From Verrucomicrobiia bacterium (GTDB taxonomy: Bacteria > Verrucomicrobiota > Verrucomicrobiia > Limisphaerales > Palsa-1400), in the NCBI GenBank assembly GCA_025934545.1, contig JAICXV010000096.1:1-7414 (forward strand): a DNA stretch of 7,414 nucleotides, given 5' to 3'. Under the pieces are notes generated by a model that was given only the letters and a program-made list of their open reading frames with translations, was not told the origin of the DNA and did no database searches. A program made the position numbers and the translations under genes. Positions 1,460 through 6,500 of the stretch are shown piece after piece (positions within the stretch are counted from its first letter, which is position 1; the number at the start of each line of letters is the position of its first letter).

Positions 1460-2478
1460 GCGGCAACTTGTTTGGGCGGTGCCGTGCTCTGACGAATTAC
1501 CACCGCCGCCGATAGACGAGCTGGCACGGGCTGGTTTCCGTGCAGATATTGTTTCATCAACTCAACCGCCGCCCGACCGAGGCGCGCTTTTGGCTGGCGC
1601 ACCGTCGTAAGGGGAATCCGGAAATGTTCGCTCGCCAAAGTATTTCCAAAACCGGCGATCGACATGTCCTCCGGAATTTTTGCGCCCTGTCTCAAAAACG
1701 TATTCGCCGCGCCGATCGCGACCATATCGTTCACCGCTTGTATCGCCGTCACCTGGACCGCTTCGTTGATGATTTGCAACGCCGCCGCTTCGCCTTCTTC
1801 GATCGTTGAACCGCCGGCGAAAATCAATTTGTCGTCCGGTTCGATGTCCGTCTCACGCAACGCCCGACGATAACCTTCGATCCGTTCGTGGGCTTGCGGA
1901 GAAGCCATCGGCCCCGAAAGAAACGCGATCCGTTTATGGCCGAGTTCGAGCAAATGTTTCGTCATCGCAAAACTGCCCTGCAAATCATCACCCTCCACGT
2001 TCACAAAATTCGCGCAGAACGGCGCGCGTTGTCCAAGGATGATCGTCGGCACCCGGCGGTTGAATAATTCCGTGTAGATTGGCGCGGTCGGTTCAAGTCG
2101 ATAAACCGGCACGACAAAAATTCCATCGACGCGCCGAGCCAACAAACGCCGGATGCACGCTTCTTCGCGTTCCTGAATGTTTAACGTGTGCGCGATGATC
2201 AAATCGTAACCCATCTCGTGCGCGCTCTCCTCGATCGCCGACACCATGCGCGCGTAAACTGGATTCACAATTGTCGGCAGCAACAATCCGAGCAGGCGGG
2301 TGGTGCGACTCCGCAGTCCCTGCGCGGCCGAGTCCGGCACATAACCCATTTGTTGGGCGAGCAATTTGATTCGCGTTTTGGTGCTCGCGGAAATATCCGG
2401 CGCATTGCGCATCGCTTTGGAAACGGTCATGACCGAGACGCCCGCCGCAAACGCGATGTCTTTTAACCGCACCGTCAT
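1456..2478 (-). CDS. LacI/GalR-family transcriptional regulator
   Basis: This 340-residue protein has the full LacI architecture. A helix-turn-helix sits at residues 3-24 (VRLKDIAFAAGVSVMTVSKA). A hinge region follows at about 49-60 (DSAAQGLRSRTT). A periplasmic-binding-protein-like effector domain starts at LLGLLLPTIVNPVY and includes LGHKRIAFLSGP (179-190), NDMVAIGA (250-257) and PEDMSIAGFGN (269-279), where most relatives have GFDD. I chose ATG 2478 rather than the in-frame upstream start at 2721. The helix-turn-helix begins within three residues of it, and the extra 81 residues would only be nadK read in another frame. The ATG overlaps the nadK stop (ATGA), implying translational coupling. 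A GGAG lies 12 bases upstream, a weak ribosome site. The effector is probably a sugar or related metabolite. The regulated operon is not evident here. The product is likely a dimeric DNA-binding protein. Confidence 0.93.
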   Translation of the reverse strand: MTVRLKDIAFAAGVSVMTVSKAMRNAPDISASTKTRIKLLAQQMGYVPDSAAQGLRSRTTRLLGLLLPTIVNPVYARMVSAIEESAHEMGYDLIIAHTLNIQEREEACIRRLLARRVDGIFVVPVYRLEPTAPIYTELFNRRVPTIILGQRAPFCANFVNVEGDDLQGSFAMTKHLLELGHKRIAFLSGPMASPQAHERIEGYRRALRETDIEPDDKLIFAGGSTIEEGEAAALQIINEAVQVTAIQAVNDMVAIGAANTFLRQGAKIPEDMSIAGFGNTLASEHFRIPLTTVRQPKARLGRAAVELMKQYLHGNQPVPARLSAAVVIRQSTAPPKQVAA

Positions 2479-3383
2479 ACTGCCGAGCCGCTCCAGTGCA
2501 ACTTGCGACGAATCGTCTCGAAGAACGATGTCCCGCCCGGATGCAACAGATTCACCGATCGCACGCTCCGGCGGATCGTCACAATTTCTCCAACGCGCAA
2601 TGGAGTGACGACATGACCATCCGCCGCGACAATCGTTTCCACATTCTCCGTGATGAGTTTCACTTTGATGATCGAATTCATGCTCACGATCAATGAGCGG
2701 TTCGACAATGCGTGCGCGCAAATCGGCGTGATGGCGAAAACATTCGCGTCCGGATTGATGATTGGGCCGCCGGCCGCCAGCGAATACGCCGTCGAACCTG
2801 TCGGCGAACTGACGATTAAACCATCGCCCCGATAACGCGTCAGCGGCTGGTCATCGACGGTTACGTCGAGGTCGATCACGCGCGAGGCCGCCCCGTGGCT
2901 GATCACGATGTCGTTCAATGCGGCCATCGTCACCGATTTTTTTCCGTGCTCAGTGGCGCCTTCGATGAGTGAACGCGGTTCAACGACAAAGTCCGGGCTG
3001 AAGATTTTCTTAAGAACCGAAGCGAGGCGGTCCGACGGAACGGCGGTCAGAAAACCAAGCCGGCCAACATTGATTCCAAGGATCGGTGTGCCGATTCCAT
3101 CGATCGATGCGACAACACGCAAGATTGTTCCATCGCCGCCGAAAACCAGCAACAGGTCTACGGCTTTCGCGAGTGCGGTGAGGTTCGGATGTGTCTCACA
3201 TTTGAGCCCGGCGAACGTCGCTGTGATATGGTCGCTCGCGACCTTGCGTCCGGTTTTGCGGATGAGCGCCATCGCTCGATGGACGACGGCGCGGCTGGCC
3301 GCTTTCTCCGCGTTGGCGACTAAGCCGATTCGGTTGATTGGGGAGGGGACCCGCAGCGGTTGAGTTTTACGCGTCTTTTTCAA
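2475..3383 (-). CDS. nadK: NAD kinase (ATP-NAD kinase)
   Basis: The product phosphorylates NAD to NADP in the cytosol. Its 302 residues fit the bacterial family. Diagnostic motifs are FGGDGTIL (81-88, the GGDGT phosphate/NAD loop), NVGRLGFLT (105-113), the LN-acid motif as LND (156-158, commonly LNE), and GDGLIVSSPTGSTAYSLAAG (187-206). ADGH (254-257) matches the C-terminal DGQ motif. The start is TTG at 3383. An in-frame TAG lies three codons upstream, and the first beta strand (RIGLVANA, 18-25) must be kept, so no ATG is available before residue 38. This start overlaps the tlyA coding end by 17 bases, and there is no Shine-Dalgarno, so translation is probably coupled to tlyA. The gene stop overlaps the lacI start. 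A tlyA-nadK pairing (often with recN) is known in many bacteria, which supports the assignment. Confidence 0.95.
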   Translation of the reverse strand: MKKTRKTQPLRVPSPINRIGLVANAEKAASRAVVHRAMALIRKTGRKVASDHITATFAGLKCETHPNLTALAKAVDLLLVFGGDGTILRVVASIDGIGTPILGINVGRLGFLTAVPSDRLASVLKKIFSPDFVVEPRSLIEGATEHGKKSVTMAALNDIVISHGAASRVIDLDVTVDDQPLTRYRGDGLIVSSPTGSTAYSLAAGGPIINPDANVFAITPICAHALSNRSLIVSMNSIIKVKLITENVETIVAADGHVVTPLRVGEIVTIRRSVRSVNLLHPGGTSFFETIRRKLHWSGSAV

Positions 3384-4107
3384 GGAGAACTAAAAATTCT
3401 TTATTGCCGGCCGGGCCGAGCAGCGGAGATTCGATCTGTAATCGCCATTTCAACGTCGTCTCATGCGTCACGAAATCGCGCAATTCTTTCAACACACGCG
3501 CGTGCACATCCGGGTCGGTGATGACGCCCGCGCCTTTATCGGCCTCGGCTTTGCCGGCTTCGAACTGAGGTTTTACGAGCGCCACAATCTTGCCCGCAGG
3601 TTGCAGTAAACTAAACGCTGCGGGAAGAATTTTCCGCAATGAGATGAACGAACAATCGATGACAATAATGTGCGCACCGTTGAATGGTTTGCGAAATTGG
3701 TCCTTCGTCAAAGCCCGCGCATTCATTTTTTCCATGACGACGACCCGCGAATCACGGCGCAACTTCCACGCCAGTTGCCCATGGCCGACATCCACCGCAT
3801 AAACCCGTTCGACGCCACGTTGCAAAAGACAATCCGTAAACCCCCCAGTCGACGCGCCGAGATCGATCGCAACCGCGTCATTTACATCCAATTTAAATTC
3901 GTCGAGCGCCGCTTCGAGTTTATGCCCACCGCGACTGACGTATTTCTCGGGCGCATCGATCGTGATCGTATCTTCCGGCGAAACATCGTCGCTCGGTTTT
4001 TTGGCCTGCTGGCCGTTGACGCGCACCTGTCCGGCGAGGATGCAGCGTTTCGCTTTCTCGCGGCTTTCCGTCAAATGCAGGTCAACCAGTGCCTGGTCCA
4101 GGCGCAT
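3367..4107 (-). CDS. tlyA: TlyA-family rRNA (cytidine-2'-O)-methyltransferase
   Basis: This 246-residue protein has the TlyA layout. An N-terminal S4 RNA-binding domain (1-50, MRLDQALVDLHLTESREKAK then AGQVRVNG) is followed by an FtsJ/RrmJ-like Rossmann methyltransferase (56-246). The SAM site is IDLGASTGGFTD (81-92). VYAVDVGHGQLAWKLR (102-117) is a TlyA signature. The K-D-K-E catalytic tetrad can be read as K63 (GGHKL), D151 (IDCSF), K179 (VKPQFE) and E237 (NKEFL). Characterised TlyA proteins 2'-O-methylate cytidines in 16S and/or 23S rRNA and affect capreomycin sensitivity. Whether this one modifies both subunits cannot be told. It was historically called a haemolysin, which is misleading here. 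ATG 4107 starts exactly where family members start. The upstream sequence is the repeated leader element, with no Shine-Dalgarno. Confidence 0.94.
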   Translation of the reverse strand: MRLDQALVDLHLTESREKAKRCILAGQVRVNGQQAKKPSDDVSPEDTITIDAPEKYVSRGGHKLEAALDEFKLDVNDAVAIDLGASTGGFTDCLLQRGVERVYAVDVGHGQLAWKLRRDSRVVVMEKMNARALTKDQFRKPFNGAHIIVIDCSFISLRKILPAAFSLLQPAGKIVALVKPQFEAGKAEADKGAGVITDPDVHARVLKELRDFVTHETTLKWRLQIESPLLGPAGNKEFLVLLEKDA

Positions 4108-4152
4108 GGCGAAAAGGTGAAACCGGACGCGTCAAAGTTCAAGAGGCAAAGC
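4105..4152 (-). repeat. Start-codon-anchored leader repeat, copy 1 (tlyA)
   Basis: This 48-base stretch matches 6311-6359 with one substitution (4145 versus 6352) and one single-base gap in a G run. On the minus strand it runs from GCTTTGCCTC through TTGAACTTTGACGCG to TTTTCGCC and ends with the tlyA ATG. Similarity stops immediately after the G of the ATG. On the far side a TAACG is shared with copy 2 after a 3-base gap. It includes an 8-base palindrome, GACGCGTC (4127-4134). It does not look coding: the gap changes frame relative to copy 2. Confidence 0.9.
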
Positions 4153-4166
4153 GTTACCAAAGACTT

Positions 4167-4478
4167 TTATCGCAACGGTGGATCCGCTCTTTTGTTGCGA
4201 ATGAGCGCATCCCATGCTTCGTAGTTGCCTCTTTCGTTTTTTTCGAATGCCTCACGTTCGTTGCCGGACCGCCATTTAAGTTTTCTGCCCTCACCTAAAT
4301 CTTTTTTGATGCGGTATGACCAGTCGAGTTCCCGCGCGCTGGATTTGCTTCCCCAACCTTCAGCCAGCGCGACTAATTCGGCGGCGTAGTTTTGTGCTGT
4401 TTCGTCCGATACATCGAATGTCTGCAAGATAAGTGCCTGCACTTCGCGAACAAGCGGAGTGATTGGGAAGATGCTCAT
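4167..4478 (-). CDS. Small charged protein of unknown function (103 aa)
   Basis: I do not recognise this protein. It starts MSIFPITPLVREVQALILQT. Residues 6-43 look largely helical (VREVQALILQTF, ETAQNYAAELVALAEGW). The C-terminal half is very polar and rich in Lys, Arg and Glu (YRIKKDLGEGRKLKWRSGNEREAFEKNERG). No signal peptide, transmembrane segment or metal motif is visible. It is the first open frame of the minus-strand unit, and its TAA is 59 bases upstream of the tlyA ATG, so it may be co-transcribed with tlyA-nadK-lacI. Upstream lies an 18-base near-perfect palindrome, and there is no Shine-Dalgarno. The gene looks real because the frame is open, intact and fills the gap exactly between the palindrome and the tlyA leader. 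Base composition seems more A+T-rich than its neighbours, consistent with an accessory gene. Chance ORF remains possible. Confidence 0.55.
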   Translation of the reverse strand: MSIFPITPLVREVQALILQTFDVSDETAQNYAAELVALAEGWGSKSSARELDWSYRIKKDLGEGRKLKWRSGNEREAFEKNERGNYEAWDALIRNKRADPPLR

Positions 4479-4502
4479 TTGTAGTTACTAGTAGGAGCAG
4501 CA

Positions 4503-4520
4503 GGTTCGAAATTTCAAACC
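4503..4520. promoter_or_regulatory. 18-base imperfect palindrome, candidate operator
   Basis: GGTTCGAAA followed directly by TTTCAAACC gives two 9-base half-sites that are reverse complements except at one position. It lies 25 bases upstream of the ATG (4478) of the 103-residue gene and inside the 156-base divergent gap before the AbrB gene. Size and symmetry fit a dimeric repressor site, but the binding protein is unknown. The adjacent LacI-type regulator is one candidate. Confidence 0.4.
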
Positions 4521-4583
4521 CGCTATTTGTCGCAATTCAATCATATGACATCTTCATCGCTGATAAGTTGATTTTCCAATTCG

Positions 4584-4598
4584 GTATGATTTTCATAC
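4584..4598. promoter_or_regulatory. 15-base perfect inverted repeat upstream of vapBC, candidate operator
   Basis: GTATGA-TTT-TCATAC is a perfect 6-base inverted repeat with a 3-base centre, 37 bases before the AbrB ATG. TATGAT inside it resembles a -10 hexamer, although no good -35 is spaced correctly. VapB antitoxins, alone or in complex with VapC, commonly repress their own promoter through such palindromes, so autoregulation is the natural reading. This is inferred from position only. Confidence 0.45.
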
Positions 4599-4634
4599 TT
4601 GTGAATGTTTGTCCAAACGTTTAATGTTTAACCA

Positions 4635-4874
4635 ATGACGACAACGCTTTCAGAACGGGGTCAGCTTGTTATTCCGAAAGGAATCCGAAAACGATTGTCT
4701 TTGATCCCTGGCGACGGTTTTGAGGTCGATACCGAAGGTCAAGATATCGTTCGTCTGAAACGTGTTTCTCGCCGTCGCAAGTTCGGTTTGGGTAAACATT
4801 TGCTCTCCTGCCCGGTCGAACTCAAAACCCCGGAACGAGCCAGCAAGCCATTGCGAGCGTTTCGTCGCAAATGA
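4635..4874 (+). CDS. AbrB/SpoVT-type antitoxin (VapB-like)
   Basis: This 79-residue protein begins with a swapped-hairpin AbrB DNA-binding domain (about 3-45). The SERGQLVIPKGIRKRLSL segment (6-23) and PGDGFEVDTEG are typical of the family. The basic tail (VSRRRKFGLGKHLL onward) would wrap around and neutralise the cognate toxin. It neutralises the VapC encoded immediately downstream and probably represses its own promoter. The stop overlaps the toxin ATG (ATGA, 4871-4874), the standard antitoxin-first, translationally coupled arrangement. ATG 4635 is at the expected family N-terminus. No Shine-Dalgarno precedes it, only an A+T-rich leader. Confidence 0.9.
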   Translation: MTTTLSERGQLVIPKGIRKRLSLIPGDGFEVDTEGQDIVRLKRVSRRRKFGLGKHLLSCPVELKTPERASKPLRAFRRK

Positions 4875-5287
4875 GTTTCCTGCTCGACACAAACGTCATT
4901 TCCGAATCCACCCGTCCAAAACCGGACGCAGGCGTGGTCGAGTTTCTCCAGCGGGATGACCTGTTCATCAGTGTTGTCACGATTTACGAACTGTATGAAG
5001 GCATTTTGGATCGGGATTACGGTCGCAAGAAGGTGCAATTGCGAAACTGGTTCGAAAAGCTAAGGACCGAATGGCGCGATTCAATCGTAATCGTCGACGA
5101 GCCGGTATCGATGAAATGGGCCGAAATCGTGCAGCGTTTGAAAAACAAAAATCATACGATGGACGTAGAAGATGTTTTGGTCGCTGCGACAGCGTCTGCG
5201 CATCGTCTCACCGTCGCAACCCGGAACGTAAAACATTTCCAACACGCCGGTGTCGATATCTATAATCCGTTTTCCCAAGATACCTAA
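4871..5287 (+). CDS. vapC: PIN-domain ribonuclease toxin (VapC family)
   Basis: This 138-residue protein is a single PIN domain, the normal length for VapC/FitB toxins. They are Mg-dependent endoribonucleases that cut tRNA or rRNA and arrest translation. The acidic site is visible: D6 (LLDTNVISE), E40 (VTIYELYEG), D101 in DVEDVLVAATA, and the fourth position at N119 (ATRNVKHF), as in the TRN-type branch. The C-terminus ends in GVDIYNPF, also typical. It overlaps the antitoxin stop by four bases. The frame is intact with all key residues, so the toxin is predicted active when not bound by the antitoxin. The RNA target cannot be read from the sequence. It converges on the NHL propeller gene, with 66 bases between the two coding ends. 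Confidence 0.93.
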   Translation: MSFLLDTNVISESTRPKPDAGVVEFLQRDDLFISVVTIYELYEGILDRDYGRKKVQLRNWFEKLRTEWRDSIVIVDEPVSMKWAEIVQRLKNKNHTMDVEDVLVAATASAHRLTVATRNVKHFQHAGVDIYNPFSQDT

Positions 5288-5293
5288 ACACCG

Positions 5294-5319
5294 CGAAAGA
5301 TTGATCTGGTCTTCTTTCG
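5294..5319. terminator. Weak stem-loop between convergent genes, possible terminator
   Basis: CGAAAGA (5294-5300) and TCTTTCG (5313-5319) form a perfect 7-base stem with a 12-base loop, just after the vapC stop and 35 bases past the NHL gene stop. A pyrimidine-rich TTCTCTCT follows on the plus strand rather than a clean U run. Position between converging genes favours a transcription-end role, but the stem is A+T-rich and weak. Confidence 0.35.
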
Positions 5320-5353
5320 GTTCTCTCTGCTCGTTCTATGCTTAAATCTCGAC

Positions 5354-6313
5354 CTATTTCGTTCTGACGAATTTCTCCACGCGACCAAATTTGCTCCATT
5401 CCGTCACAATCAGATTTCCGTCCTTGTCGATGCAGGCTCCGTGCGGTGAATTGCAAATGCCATCGGTCCATTGATCGGGCGGTAACCCAAAATTAGCGCG
5501 TTGTTTCTCGTTGGGATTGTCACCGACTCGGGCGGCGATGTTGCCCTTGTCATCCAGGACCGTGACCCGGCCTTGCAATTCGGGAAACACCGCGTACTTG
5601 CCGCGGATATGGACGGCGGCCGGCATCCGCAGATCTTTCTGGATCACTTTGACGAAGTTGCCGTCAAGGTCCCAATACTCGACCCGATTGTTATTGCGAT
5701 CGCAAACGAGCAAAAGCGGCTTTCCCTGTCGCGTGTCCAACGCAATGCCGTGACACGTGTTGAATTTTCCTTCCTCAGCTCCCGGACCGCCGAAGGCCTT
5801 TACGAACTTCCGGTTTTTATCGAATTTCAGCACGTAATTCGATCCATATCCATCGGCGACGAAGATGTCGCCATCCGGCCCGACCGTGACCGCGCATGGA
5901 TTGAATCCTTTCGCTTCCTTATAAATGCCCGACTCCATCGGGGAAGTGATCGTCCACTGAATTTCACCGGCGAGATTGATCTTCACCACTTCGTGATCCG
6001 CTGGACGCGCCCCGTAGATGAATTCCTTGCCACCTTCTTTACGCAGTTCCAGCCCATGAATCCTAGTCGGCCCAAAGGCGCGCAGAAATTTCCCTTTCGA
6101 TGTGAACACCACGATGCCGCGCGGAGTATCAGTCGTTACATAAATATTCCCCGCCTTGTCCGTGACCACGCCACCATGGCACGGGCCCAATTGCTTTTGA
6201 TCGGGATCATGATCAAAAAAATTCGTCGCGAGCGAAAATTTTAGTTCAGCGCCGAATGCAGCGGTGGATGCGAACGCGAGCGCGCAAAGCAAGGAACAGG
6301 CAATACGATTCAT
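5354..6313 (-). CDS. Exported NHL-repeat six-bladed beta-propeller, PAL-like
   Basis: This 319-residue protein begins with a clear Sec signal peptide (MNRIACSLLCALAFASTAAFG, cut near residue 21), so it acts in the periplasm or outside. The remaining roughly 298 residues contain NHL-type blades, for example GNIYVTTD (56-62), GDIFVADGYGSNYVLKF (148-164) and PLLLVCDRNNNRVEYW (199-214). The size suits a six-bladed propeller. Three blades open with His-Gly: H86 (RIHGLEL), H188 (NTCHGIAL) and H291 (NSPHGACI). With Y156 (DGYGSN) and R206 (CDRNNNR), these match in order and near-identical spacing the Zn ligands and catalytic Tyr/Arg of peptidyl-alpha-hydroxyglycine alpha-amidating lyase. R65 may match its second Arg. 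The substrate is unknown; a generic NHL scaffold role is the alternative. ATG 6313 is chosen because it places the signal peptide at the N-terminus. Upstream in-frame starts at 6376 and 6406 would bury it. Confidence 0.87.
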   Translation of the reverse strand: MNRIACSLLCALAFASTAAFGAELKFSLATNFFDHDPDQKQLGPCHGGVVTDKAGNIYVTTDTPRGIVVFTSKGKFLRAFGPTRIHGLELRKEGGKEFIYGARPADHEVVKINLAGEIQWTITSPMESGIYKEAKGFNPCAVTVGPDGDIFVADGYGSNYVLKFDKNRKFVKAFGGPGAEEGKFNTCHGIALDTRQGKPLLLVCDRNNNRVEYWDLDGNFVKVIQKDLRMPAAVHIRGKYAVFPELQGRVTVLDDKGNIAARVGDNPNEKQRANFGLPPDQWTDGICNSPHGACIDKDGNLIVTEWSKFGRVEKFVRTK

Positions 6314-6359
6314 GGCGAAAAGGGTGAAACCGGACGCGTCAAAGTTCAAGACGCAAAGC
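6311..6359 (-). repeat. Start-codon-anchored leader repeat, copy 2 (NHL propeller gene)
   Basis: This is the second copy of the 4105-4152 element, 49 bases, with 47 of 49 aligned columns identical and the same orientation. Its last three bases on the minus strand are the ATG of the NHL propeller gene, and similarity ends there. If the promoter at 6378-6406 is used, the repeat is the bulk of the 5' untranslated leader. It contains a GCGTC/GACGC pair that could form a 5-base stem. Copy 1 breaks one pair of this stem, so structure is not supported by covariation. Confidence 0.9.
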
Positions 6360-6371
6360 TCCGTTAGGAGC
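6358..6371 (-). other. Small perfect hairpin at predicted 5' end of the NHL transcript
   Basis: On the minus strand GCTCC-TAAC-GGAGC forms a 5-base stem with a 4-base loop. Its first base is about seven bases downstream of the predicted -10, so the RNA would begin at or very near the stem. Copy 1 of the leader keeps TAACG but lacks the stem. Confidence 0.4.
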
Positions 6372-6377
6372 GCCATG

Positions 6378-6406
6378 TTTATAGAAACCCGACCCACCAA
6401 TAACAA
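6378..6406 (-). promoter_or_regulatory. Predicted sigma70-type promoter for the NHL propeller gene
   Basis: On the minus strand, TTGTTA (6406-6401) is followed by 17 bases and TATAAA (6383-6378). Spacing is ideal, with 4 of 6 and 5 of 6 consensus matches. Transcription would start near 6371, giving a leader of about 58 bases ending at ATG 6313. Confidence 0.5.
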
Positions 6407-6451
6407 TTAATCGCCTCGTTTTTGCCGAACCCCACCTCAGGCCGACACCTA

Positions 6452-6481
6452 TTGTTCTCATTAACGCGACCAATAGATAAT
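6452..6481 (+). promoter_or_regulatory. Predicted promoter for the iron-type alcohol dehydrogenase gene
   Basis: TTGTTC (6452-6457), an 18-base spacer and GATAAT (6476-6481) resemble a sigma70 promoter. The start of transcription would fall near 6488, about a dozen bases before ATG 6501, giving a very short leader. It is divergent from the NHL promoter, and the two -35 regions are about 45 bases apart. Confidence 0.4.
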
Positions 6482-6500
6482 TCCTGTCAAATATCAGGGT

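What the first reader, a model, noticed from the sequence alone, without database searches (positions are those of the whole stretch)
4105..6359. Near-identical 49-base element fused to the ATG of two unrelated genes
Positions 4105-4152 and 6311-6359 match in 47 of 49 columns, in the same orientation, 2.2 kb apart. In both, the element ends precisely with the ATG of a minus-strand gene whose start is independently fixed: the TlyA family N-terminus, and a signal peptide. The proteins share nothing and similarity stops after the ATG, so duplicated coding sequence is excluded. The 1-base gap shifts frame, so the element itself is not a conserved peptide. A mobile or recruited 5' leader that brings its own initiation region would explain this. 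Because the starts lack Shine-Dalgarno sequences, it may be a translation-initiation or regulatory leader shared by a regulon. This is the best candidate here for something undescribed.
Basis: partly seen in the sequence, partly recalled or inferred. Interest (0 to 1): 0.74.

Follow-up and report, generated by a model that had tools for sequence, protein, structure and literature searches.

The report
Copied promoter fused to start codon
In an unnamed, probably Verrucomicrobial bacterium, the 49 bases that end at the start codon of the RNA-methylase gene tlyA recur almost unchanged at the start codon of an unrelated gene 2.2 kb away; the stretch is likely a promoter whose message would begin directly at the start codon and which was probably copied to the second gene, a small new case of two known phenomena.

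Summary
In detail: 47 of 49 columns match, same orientation, both ending on the ATG. The element is rare: a profile search of six genomes found six strong copies, four in this genome and two in the one same-genus genome searched. tlyA keeps the ATG-fused copy in both species; three of the six copies are not fused to an ATG. Motif learning on 246 genes of this genome, window excluded, recovered a -35/-10 pattern (TTG, about 17 bases, then a -10) ending mostly 5-7 bases before start codons. That is the layout of leaderless promoters. The copies fit it as TTGAAC-N17-CACCTT-N6-ATG and TTGAAC-N17-CACCCT-N7-ATG. Best reading: tlyA's leaderless promoter, duplicated onto an NHL/beta-propeller gene. 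Leaderless transcripts are already measured in Akkermansia (Verrucomicrobiota), and copied 'mobile promoters' are described in bacteria. So this is a new member of known kinds, not an undescribed RNA leader or regulon. Transcription starts and promoter activity are untested. Against: one copy lies between convergent reading frames, the spacer is also partly conserved, the -10 is poor, and a promoter-like site upstream of the NHL copy scores higher.

The parts
4105..4152 (-). element copy 1, ending with the ATG of tlyA
   Evidence: orthologous copy at tlyA in same-genus genome G001
4137..4142 (-). predicted -35 of copy 1, TTGAAC
   Evidence: held-out promoter model; invariant in all six copies
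4114..4119 (-). predicted -10 of copy 1, CACCTT (17-base spacer, 6 bases before the ATG)
3367..4107 (-). tlyA, TlyA-family rRNA (cytidine-2'-O)-methyltransferase
   Evidence: NCBIfam TIGR00478 above its cut-off; Pfam S4 + FtsJ
6311..6359 (-). element copy 2, ending with the ATG of the NHL gene
6344..6349 (-). predicted -35 of copy 2, TTGAAC
6321..6326 (-). predicted -10 of copy 2, CACCCT (17-base spacer, 7 bases before the ATG; the model itself preferred ACCCTT with an 18-base spacer, 6 bases before the ATG)
   Evidence: sequence
5354..6313 (-). NHL-repeat / six-bladed beta-propeller protein with signal-peptide-like N-terminus
   Evidence: Pfam PF01436, PF17170; orthologs 74% and 68% in G003 and G002
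6356..6389 (-). separate dispersed palindromic repeat (GCTCC-TAAC-GGAGC with a TATAAACAT flank) abutting copy 2 upstream; its TATAAA is the -10 of a promoter-like site TTGTTA-N17-TATAAA
   Evidence: four copies in this genome at up to 3 mismatches, contexts

Best explanation
The 49-base element is likely the promoter of tlyA, predicted to start transcription on the A of the ATG and so to yield a leaderless mRNA, and a second, nearly identical copy of it sits at the ATG of an unrelated NHL-propeller gene. Predicted anatomy: -35 TTGAAC, 17 bases, -10 CACCTT (copy 2: CACCCT), 6-7 bases, ATG. The similarity would stop at the ATG because a leaderless promoter ends there, and no Shine-Dalgarno sequence would be needed. 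Shown: the sequence match, the tlyA copy shared with the same-genus species, and a -35/-10 pattern locked to start codons in a sample of this genome. Inferred: promoter activity, the transcription start, and that the NHL copy arose by duplication of tlyA's promoter after the two species split (1 substitution and 1 indel between the two copies; 5 substitutions in 45 bases between the two species' tlyA copies). The route of copying is unknown.
For: Genome pattern: of 258 sampled genes with an upstream gap of at least 40 bases, 21 (18 without the window and contig C399) have TTG-N16..18-[T/C]A...T ending 5-7 bases before the start, against a mean of 1.79 (maximum 5) at 24 control offsets. EM on 246 genes, window and C399 excluded: log-likelihood 98.4 from a consensus start and 98.5 in each of the best six of 20 random starts, same motif; 38-55 in 20 shuffles, 65 for displaced windows. 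Shine-Dalgarno-like words are not in excess in these genes: 18 of 258 versus 15.1 in control windows. Held-out scores with the consensus-started model: tlyA in the top 0.7% of 8000 ATGs and best of 180 offsets; G001 tlyA the same score; NHL in the top 2%. In the six aligned copies the two hexamers vary in 1 of 12 columns and the spacer in 8 of 17 (Fisher two-sided p 0.043; copies not independent; one copy's extra spacer base left out); A at -10 position 2 and T at position 6 are kept in all six. tlyA leader between species: 40 of 48 bases identical, all in the 45 nearest the ATG, versus 58% at third codon positions and 15 of 60 just upstream. NHL orthologs in G002 and G003 have unrelated upstream sequence (by eye; no strong profile hit there). 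Four of seven cobA loci of this family show a start-fused -35/-10 on my reading. Akkermansia muciniphila: 10% of mapped starts leaderless (PMC4782308, passages).
Against: No transcription start is mapped. Three of six copies are not fused to a start: 66 bases before cobA, 23 before an HMA-domain gene, one between convergent reading frames. Parts of the spacer are as conserved as the hexamers. CACCTT/CACCCT lacks the first T of a consensus -10, and the plain sigma-70 scan calls neither copy. For NHL, a promoter-like site 58 bases upstream scores higher (3.0 versus 2.1). My gene caller chose a longer start for NHL, so it is not among the 21. The tlyA leader is no better conserved than much of the coding sequence: 282 of 693 48-base coding windows are at least as identical. 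The pattern is weaker in relatives: in G004 (128 genes) TTG..TA...T ends 4-7 bases before the start in 3 and 8-11 bases before in 7, and CA...T shows no excess; in 20 loci of other genomes (83 genes) 2 at 4-7. Genes with short upstream gaps do show some Shine-Dalgarno-like words, 9 of 96 versus 4.4. Start calls are approximate and come from 102 contigs or parts, about 15% of a 73%-complete draft.
Confidence: 0.6

Rival explanations
1. A low-copy dispersed intergenic repeat with no promoter role; the fusion to two ATGs is incidental, tlyA's copy having been inherited by both species.
For: Three of six copies lie away from a start codon and one of these between convergent reading frames; the spacer is partly as conserved as the hexamers; copy 2 abuts another dispersed repeat; the sampled genome carries several other short palindromic repeat families.
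Against: Five of six copies lie in sense orientation upstream of a gene, three exactly at the ATG; the fit to an independently learned start-fused promoter model; conservation of the tlyA leader above third codon positions and upstream flank; no palindrome or inverted ends seen, unlike REP elements (recalled).
Confidence: 0.22
2. The two copies are direct repeats left by insertion of a 2.2-kb segment (NHL gene, VapBC-like pair, small ORF) next to tlyA, by site-specific or homologous recombination; the shared ATG follows from where the crossover lay.
For: The copies are direct repeats flanking exactly that segment; in the same-genus genome a single copy stands at tlyA with a different upstream neighbour; the NHL ortholog is not beside tlyA in G002 or G003 (different contigs).
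Against: No integrase or transposase among the segment's ORFs that were searched; other copies stand alone on other contigs. This rival is compatible with a promoter role and could be its route.
Confidence: 0.1
3. One reading: a transcribed 5' leader controlling translation or RNA stability of a regulon.
For: Sharp end at the ATG and no Shine-Dalgarno; a promoter-like site upstream of the NHL copy would transcribe it.
Against: The tlyA copy folds no better than shuffles (z 0.24) and the 96-base NHL stretch, which includes part of the palindrome, only weakly (z -1.48); no Rfam match; only two of four copies in the genome are at an ATG; the genes share no evident pathway (my judgement).
Confidence: 0.08

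Closest known systems
Leaderless genes with a -10 box adjacent to the ORF (Zheng et al. 2011 PMC3160421; Zhong et al. 2025 PMC12340547; Akkermansia data in PMC4782308)
   Same: -10-like box a few bases before the start codon, no Shine-Dalgarno; in Deinococcus radiodurans the motif lies about 6-7 bp before the ORF
   Different: -10 here is CACCTT/CACCCT, not TANNNT; no transcript data for this organism
Putative mobile promoters (Matus-Garcia et al. 2012; van Passel et al. 2014; known here only from citing passages in PMC8049555 and PMC9208149, the primary papers are not held)
   Different: this one ends flush with the start codon, is low-copy, and was found only in one genus in the genomes searched
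REP-type palindromic repeats (recalled)
   Same: short, dispersed, intergenic
   Different: no palindrome seen; only four strong copies found in the genome

Membership tests
Leaderless promoter | -10 element ending about 5-8 bases before the start codon | tested here: met
   CACCTT-N6-ATG and CACCCT-N7-ATG; held-out model score in top 0.7% and 2% of 8000 ATGs
Leaderless promoter | TANNNT core of the -10 | tested here: not met
   CACCTT/CACCCT lacks the first T; TTG-N16..18-CA...T at this place is nonetheless enriched in this genome, 10 genes (tlyA among them) versus 0.88 at control offsets
Leaderless promoter | -35 at 16-18 bases | tested here: met
   TTGAAC, 17-base spacer
Leaderless promoter | transcription starts on the start codon | not testable with these tools
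   needs 5'-end mapping
Mobile promoter | near-identical sequence upstream of unrelated genes of one genome | tested here: met
   tlyA and NHL, 47 of 49; diverged copy before cobA
Mobile promoter | copying to new places in a lineage | tested here: inconclusive
   cobA of G001, NHL of G002 and G003 and the downstream side of the DUF1573/cytochrome gene of G001 lack it; loss cannot be excluded and drafts are incomplete
Mobile promoter | promoter activity | not testable with these tools
   no expression data
Structured RNA leader | stable or conserved fold / known family | tested here: not met
   z 0.24 for the tlyA copy, z -1.48 for the NHL stretch; no Rfam match up to E 1. No covariation test was run.

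The most novel reading that the evidence does not exclude
A 'plug-in start': a mobile leaderless promoter cassette of about 48 bases that delivers transcription start and translation start in one piece, so a copy landing against any ATG expresses that gene without a 5' UTR or ribosome-binding site; in lineages with little Shine-Dalgarno use, such flush cassettes could be a common route to rewire genes.
Probability: 0.2. Interest if true: 0.55.

Novelty: new member of a known kind. Interest (0 to 1): 0.32.

Why it matters
In genomes that start many genes without a leader, a promoter can be copied together with the start codon it serves, so promoter capture needs no ribosome-binding site. If confirmed it would link two known phenomena, leaderless transcription and mobile promoters, in a little-studied phylum, and it gives a practical warning: conserved 'leaders' that end exactly at an ATG may simply be promoters.

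Tried and rejected
Rfam search of the window: nothing up to E 1. RNA folding of both copies: no clear signal beyond shuffles. Standard sigma-70 consensus scan of 4000-6500: misses both copies. Class-wide degenerate pattern: 30 of 384 genomes (this one included) match at up to 2 mismatches, but 29 genomes, by my count of the table, match the reversed control pattern, so there is no excess outside this genome; G001 was not in that draw. Element sought as DNA in 58 genomes: only this genome and G001. The 80 tlyA loci of genome contigs (L007-L086), scanned whole on both strands at up to 7 substitutions of a 28-base core: none; G002-G010 upstream of tlyA: none seen by eye. The idea that a wider 'CTTTGCGTCTT' repeat underlies the element: 4 matches versus a mean of 1.7 (maximum 5) in shuffles, dropped. 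A first gene set on fewer contigs was superseded. The profile search scored only 150 of about 1,900-4,300 candidates per genome, so weak copies can be missed; hits at E 0.013 and above were treated as chance.
Full report
Observation. The window is one whole contig (C789) of an unnamed draft genome: 3.58 Mb, 797 contigs, 73% complete. Its best named tlyA matches are mostly Verrucomicrobia MAGs, subdivision 3 among them. On the minus strand, 4152-4105 and 6359-6311 align in 49 columns with 47 matches, one mismatch and one gap. Each copy ends on the ATG of a gene: tlyA and an NHL/beta-propeller gene. The core is not expected by chance (0 in 200 shuffles).

How many copies. DNA search of the own genome gave three places: the two in the window and C399:3178-3220. 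Among 58 genomes searched, only this one and the one other genome of its genus, G001, matched; G001's copy is at tlyA, again fused to the ATG, although the upstream gene there is a different one, a glycosyl hydrolase 25 gene. A sequence profile built from those four copies and run on six genomes found two more strong copies: G001:C77 and G000:C297, E about 2e-7; the next hit is E 0.013. In all, six strong copies, four in this genome and two in G001. Three end on an ATG. One lies 66 bases (counted from the predicted -10) before cobA, one 23 bases before an HMA-domain gene, and one between convergent reading frames, of which the nearer minus-strand one (117 aa) has no Pfam match. At that last place G001 has the large neighbouring gene in the opposite orientation right after the cytochrome gene (my reading of the translation), so the copy marks a rearrangement.

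What it is. I called genes on 102 contigs or parts of this genome (357 genes; 258 with an upstream gap of at least 40 bases) and learned motifs before the starts of the 246 that are not on the window or C399. A two-box motif appears: T-T-G, about 17 bases, an A/T-rich box ending mostly 5-7 bases before the start (a fifth of the weight falls at 9). The best six of 20 random starts reach the same solution as a consensus start, and the likelihood is well above shuffled and displaced controls. Shine-Dalgarno-like words are not in excess in these genes (18 of 258 versus 15.1), though they are somewhat so in genes with short gaps (9 of 96 versus 4.4). This is the arrangement expected of leaderless genes (PMC3160421: section 7 and passages read; PMC12340547: outline and section 7 read). 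Leaderless starts make up 10% of mapped starts in Akkermansia muciniphila, a member of Verrucomicrobia (PMC4782308, passages read), and some Verrucomicrobia are listed as Shine-Dalgarno-scarce (PMC10783764, passages read). The word Verrucomicrobia does not occur in the main text of PMC3160421. The listings of three searches showed no paper on leaderless genes in this particular lineage.

Relatives. The same count is weaker elsewhere: in G004 (128 genes) TTG-N16..18-TA...T peaks both at 6-9 and at 11 bases before the start, and the CA...T form shows no excess; in 20 loci of other genomes (83 genes) only 2 genes fall at 4-7. So the CA...T -10 may be peculiar to this genome, or a sampling effect.

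Fit of the element. Scored with a model that never saw the window or C399, the tlyA start ranks in the top 0.7% of 8000 ATGs and the NHL start in the top 2%. The fit is TTGAAC, 17 bases, CACCTT or CACCCT, 6 or 7 bases, ATG. The third copy's gene, cobA, has its own better start-fused site (3.81). Across the six copies the hexamers vary in 1 of 12 columns and the spacer in 8 of 17. Between the two species the tlyA leader is 40 of 48 identical (all in the 45 bases nearest the ATG), while third codon positions are at 58% and the 60 bases just upstream match in 15; but 282 of 693 coding windows of that length are at least as identical. This suggests constraint, and cannot by itself separate a promoter from other uses.

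History. The tlyA copy is shared by the two species and is the likely source. The NHL gene's orthologs in G002 and G003 have unrelated upstream sequence, and cobA in G001 lacks the element. So the others look lineage-specific, though drafts are incomplete (73% and 67%) and loss is possible. How the copy was made is not known; the two window copies are direct repeats around a 2.2-kb segment, which also allows an insertion or recombination reading. Upstream, copy 2 abuts another dispersed palindromic repeat.

Against this reading. Half the copies are not at a start codon; the -10 is poor; the NHL copy is outscored by a site 58 bases upstream; the plain consensus scan finds neither copy; nothing has been measured. 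I therefore put 0.6 on the duplicated leaderless promoter, with a plain dispersed repeat as the main rival.

Novelty. Both ingredients are in print. Mobile promoters are known here from citing passages only (PMC8049555, PMC9208149; the primary papers are not held). One search joining leaderless and mobile-promoter terms listed three papers, by title none on the combination. I rate it a new member of a known kind, of modest interest.

Noticed in passing
window 6356-6389 (-); L006 2610-2642; L206 1500-1533; L207 about 125-155: Dispersed palindromic repeat GTTTCTATAAACAT-N-GCGCTCCTAACGGAGC, four copies in the genome at up to 3 mismatches, the three outside the window with a second, imperfectly kept GCTCCTACGGAGC-like stretch upstream; carries a TATAAA that could act as a -10.
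   Followed up: partly
window 4635-5287 (+): A small gene weakly like MazE antitoxins (below Pfam's cut-off) overlapping a PIN-domain, VapC-like gene, lying between the two element copies.
   Followed up: no
L295 1331-2887 versus L310 (G001:C631): The gene following a DUF1573/cytochrome gene is in opposite orientation in the two same-genus genomes; the sixth element copy lies at this breakpoint.
   Followed up: partly
L006 3246-3283; L109, L110, L113 upstream of cobA: Four of seven cobA loci in the family appear to carry -35/-10 boxes flush with the start codon (e.g. TTGCGC-N17-TAAACT-N7), suggesting long-kept leaderless cobA.
   Followed up: partly
L189 1440, L197 1380, L191 1980, L238 3540, L229 2760: Several other short palindromic intergenic repeat families in this genome (e.g. 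AGGCTCCTGCCGAGCC, GCGGACTGAAGTCCGC, CCGATTGNCAATCGG).
   Followed up: no
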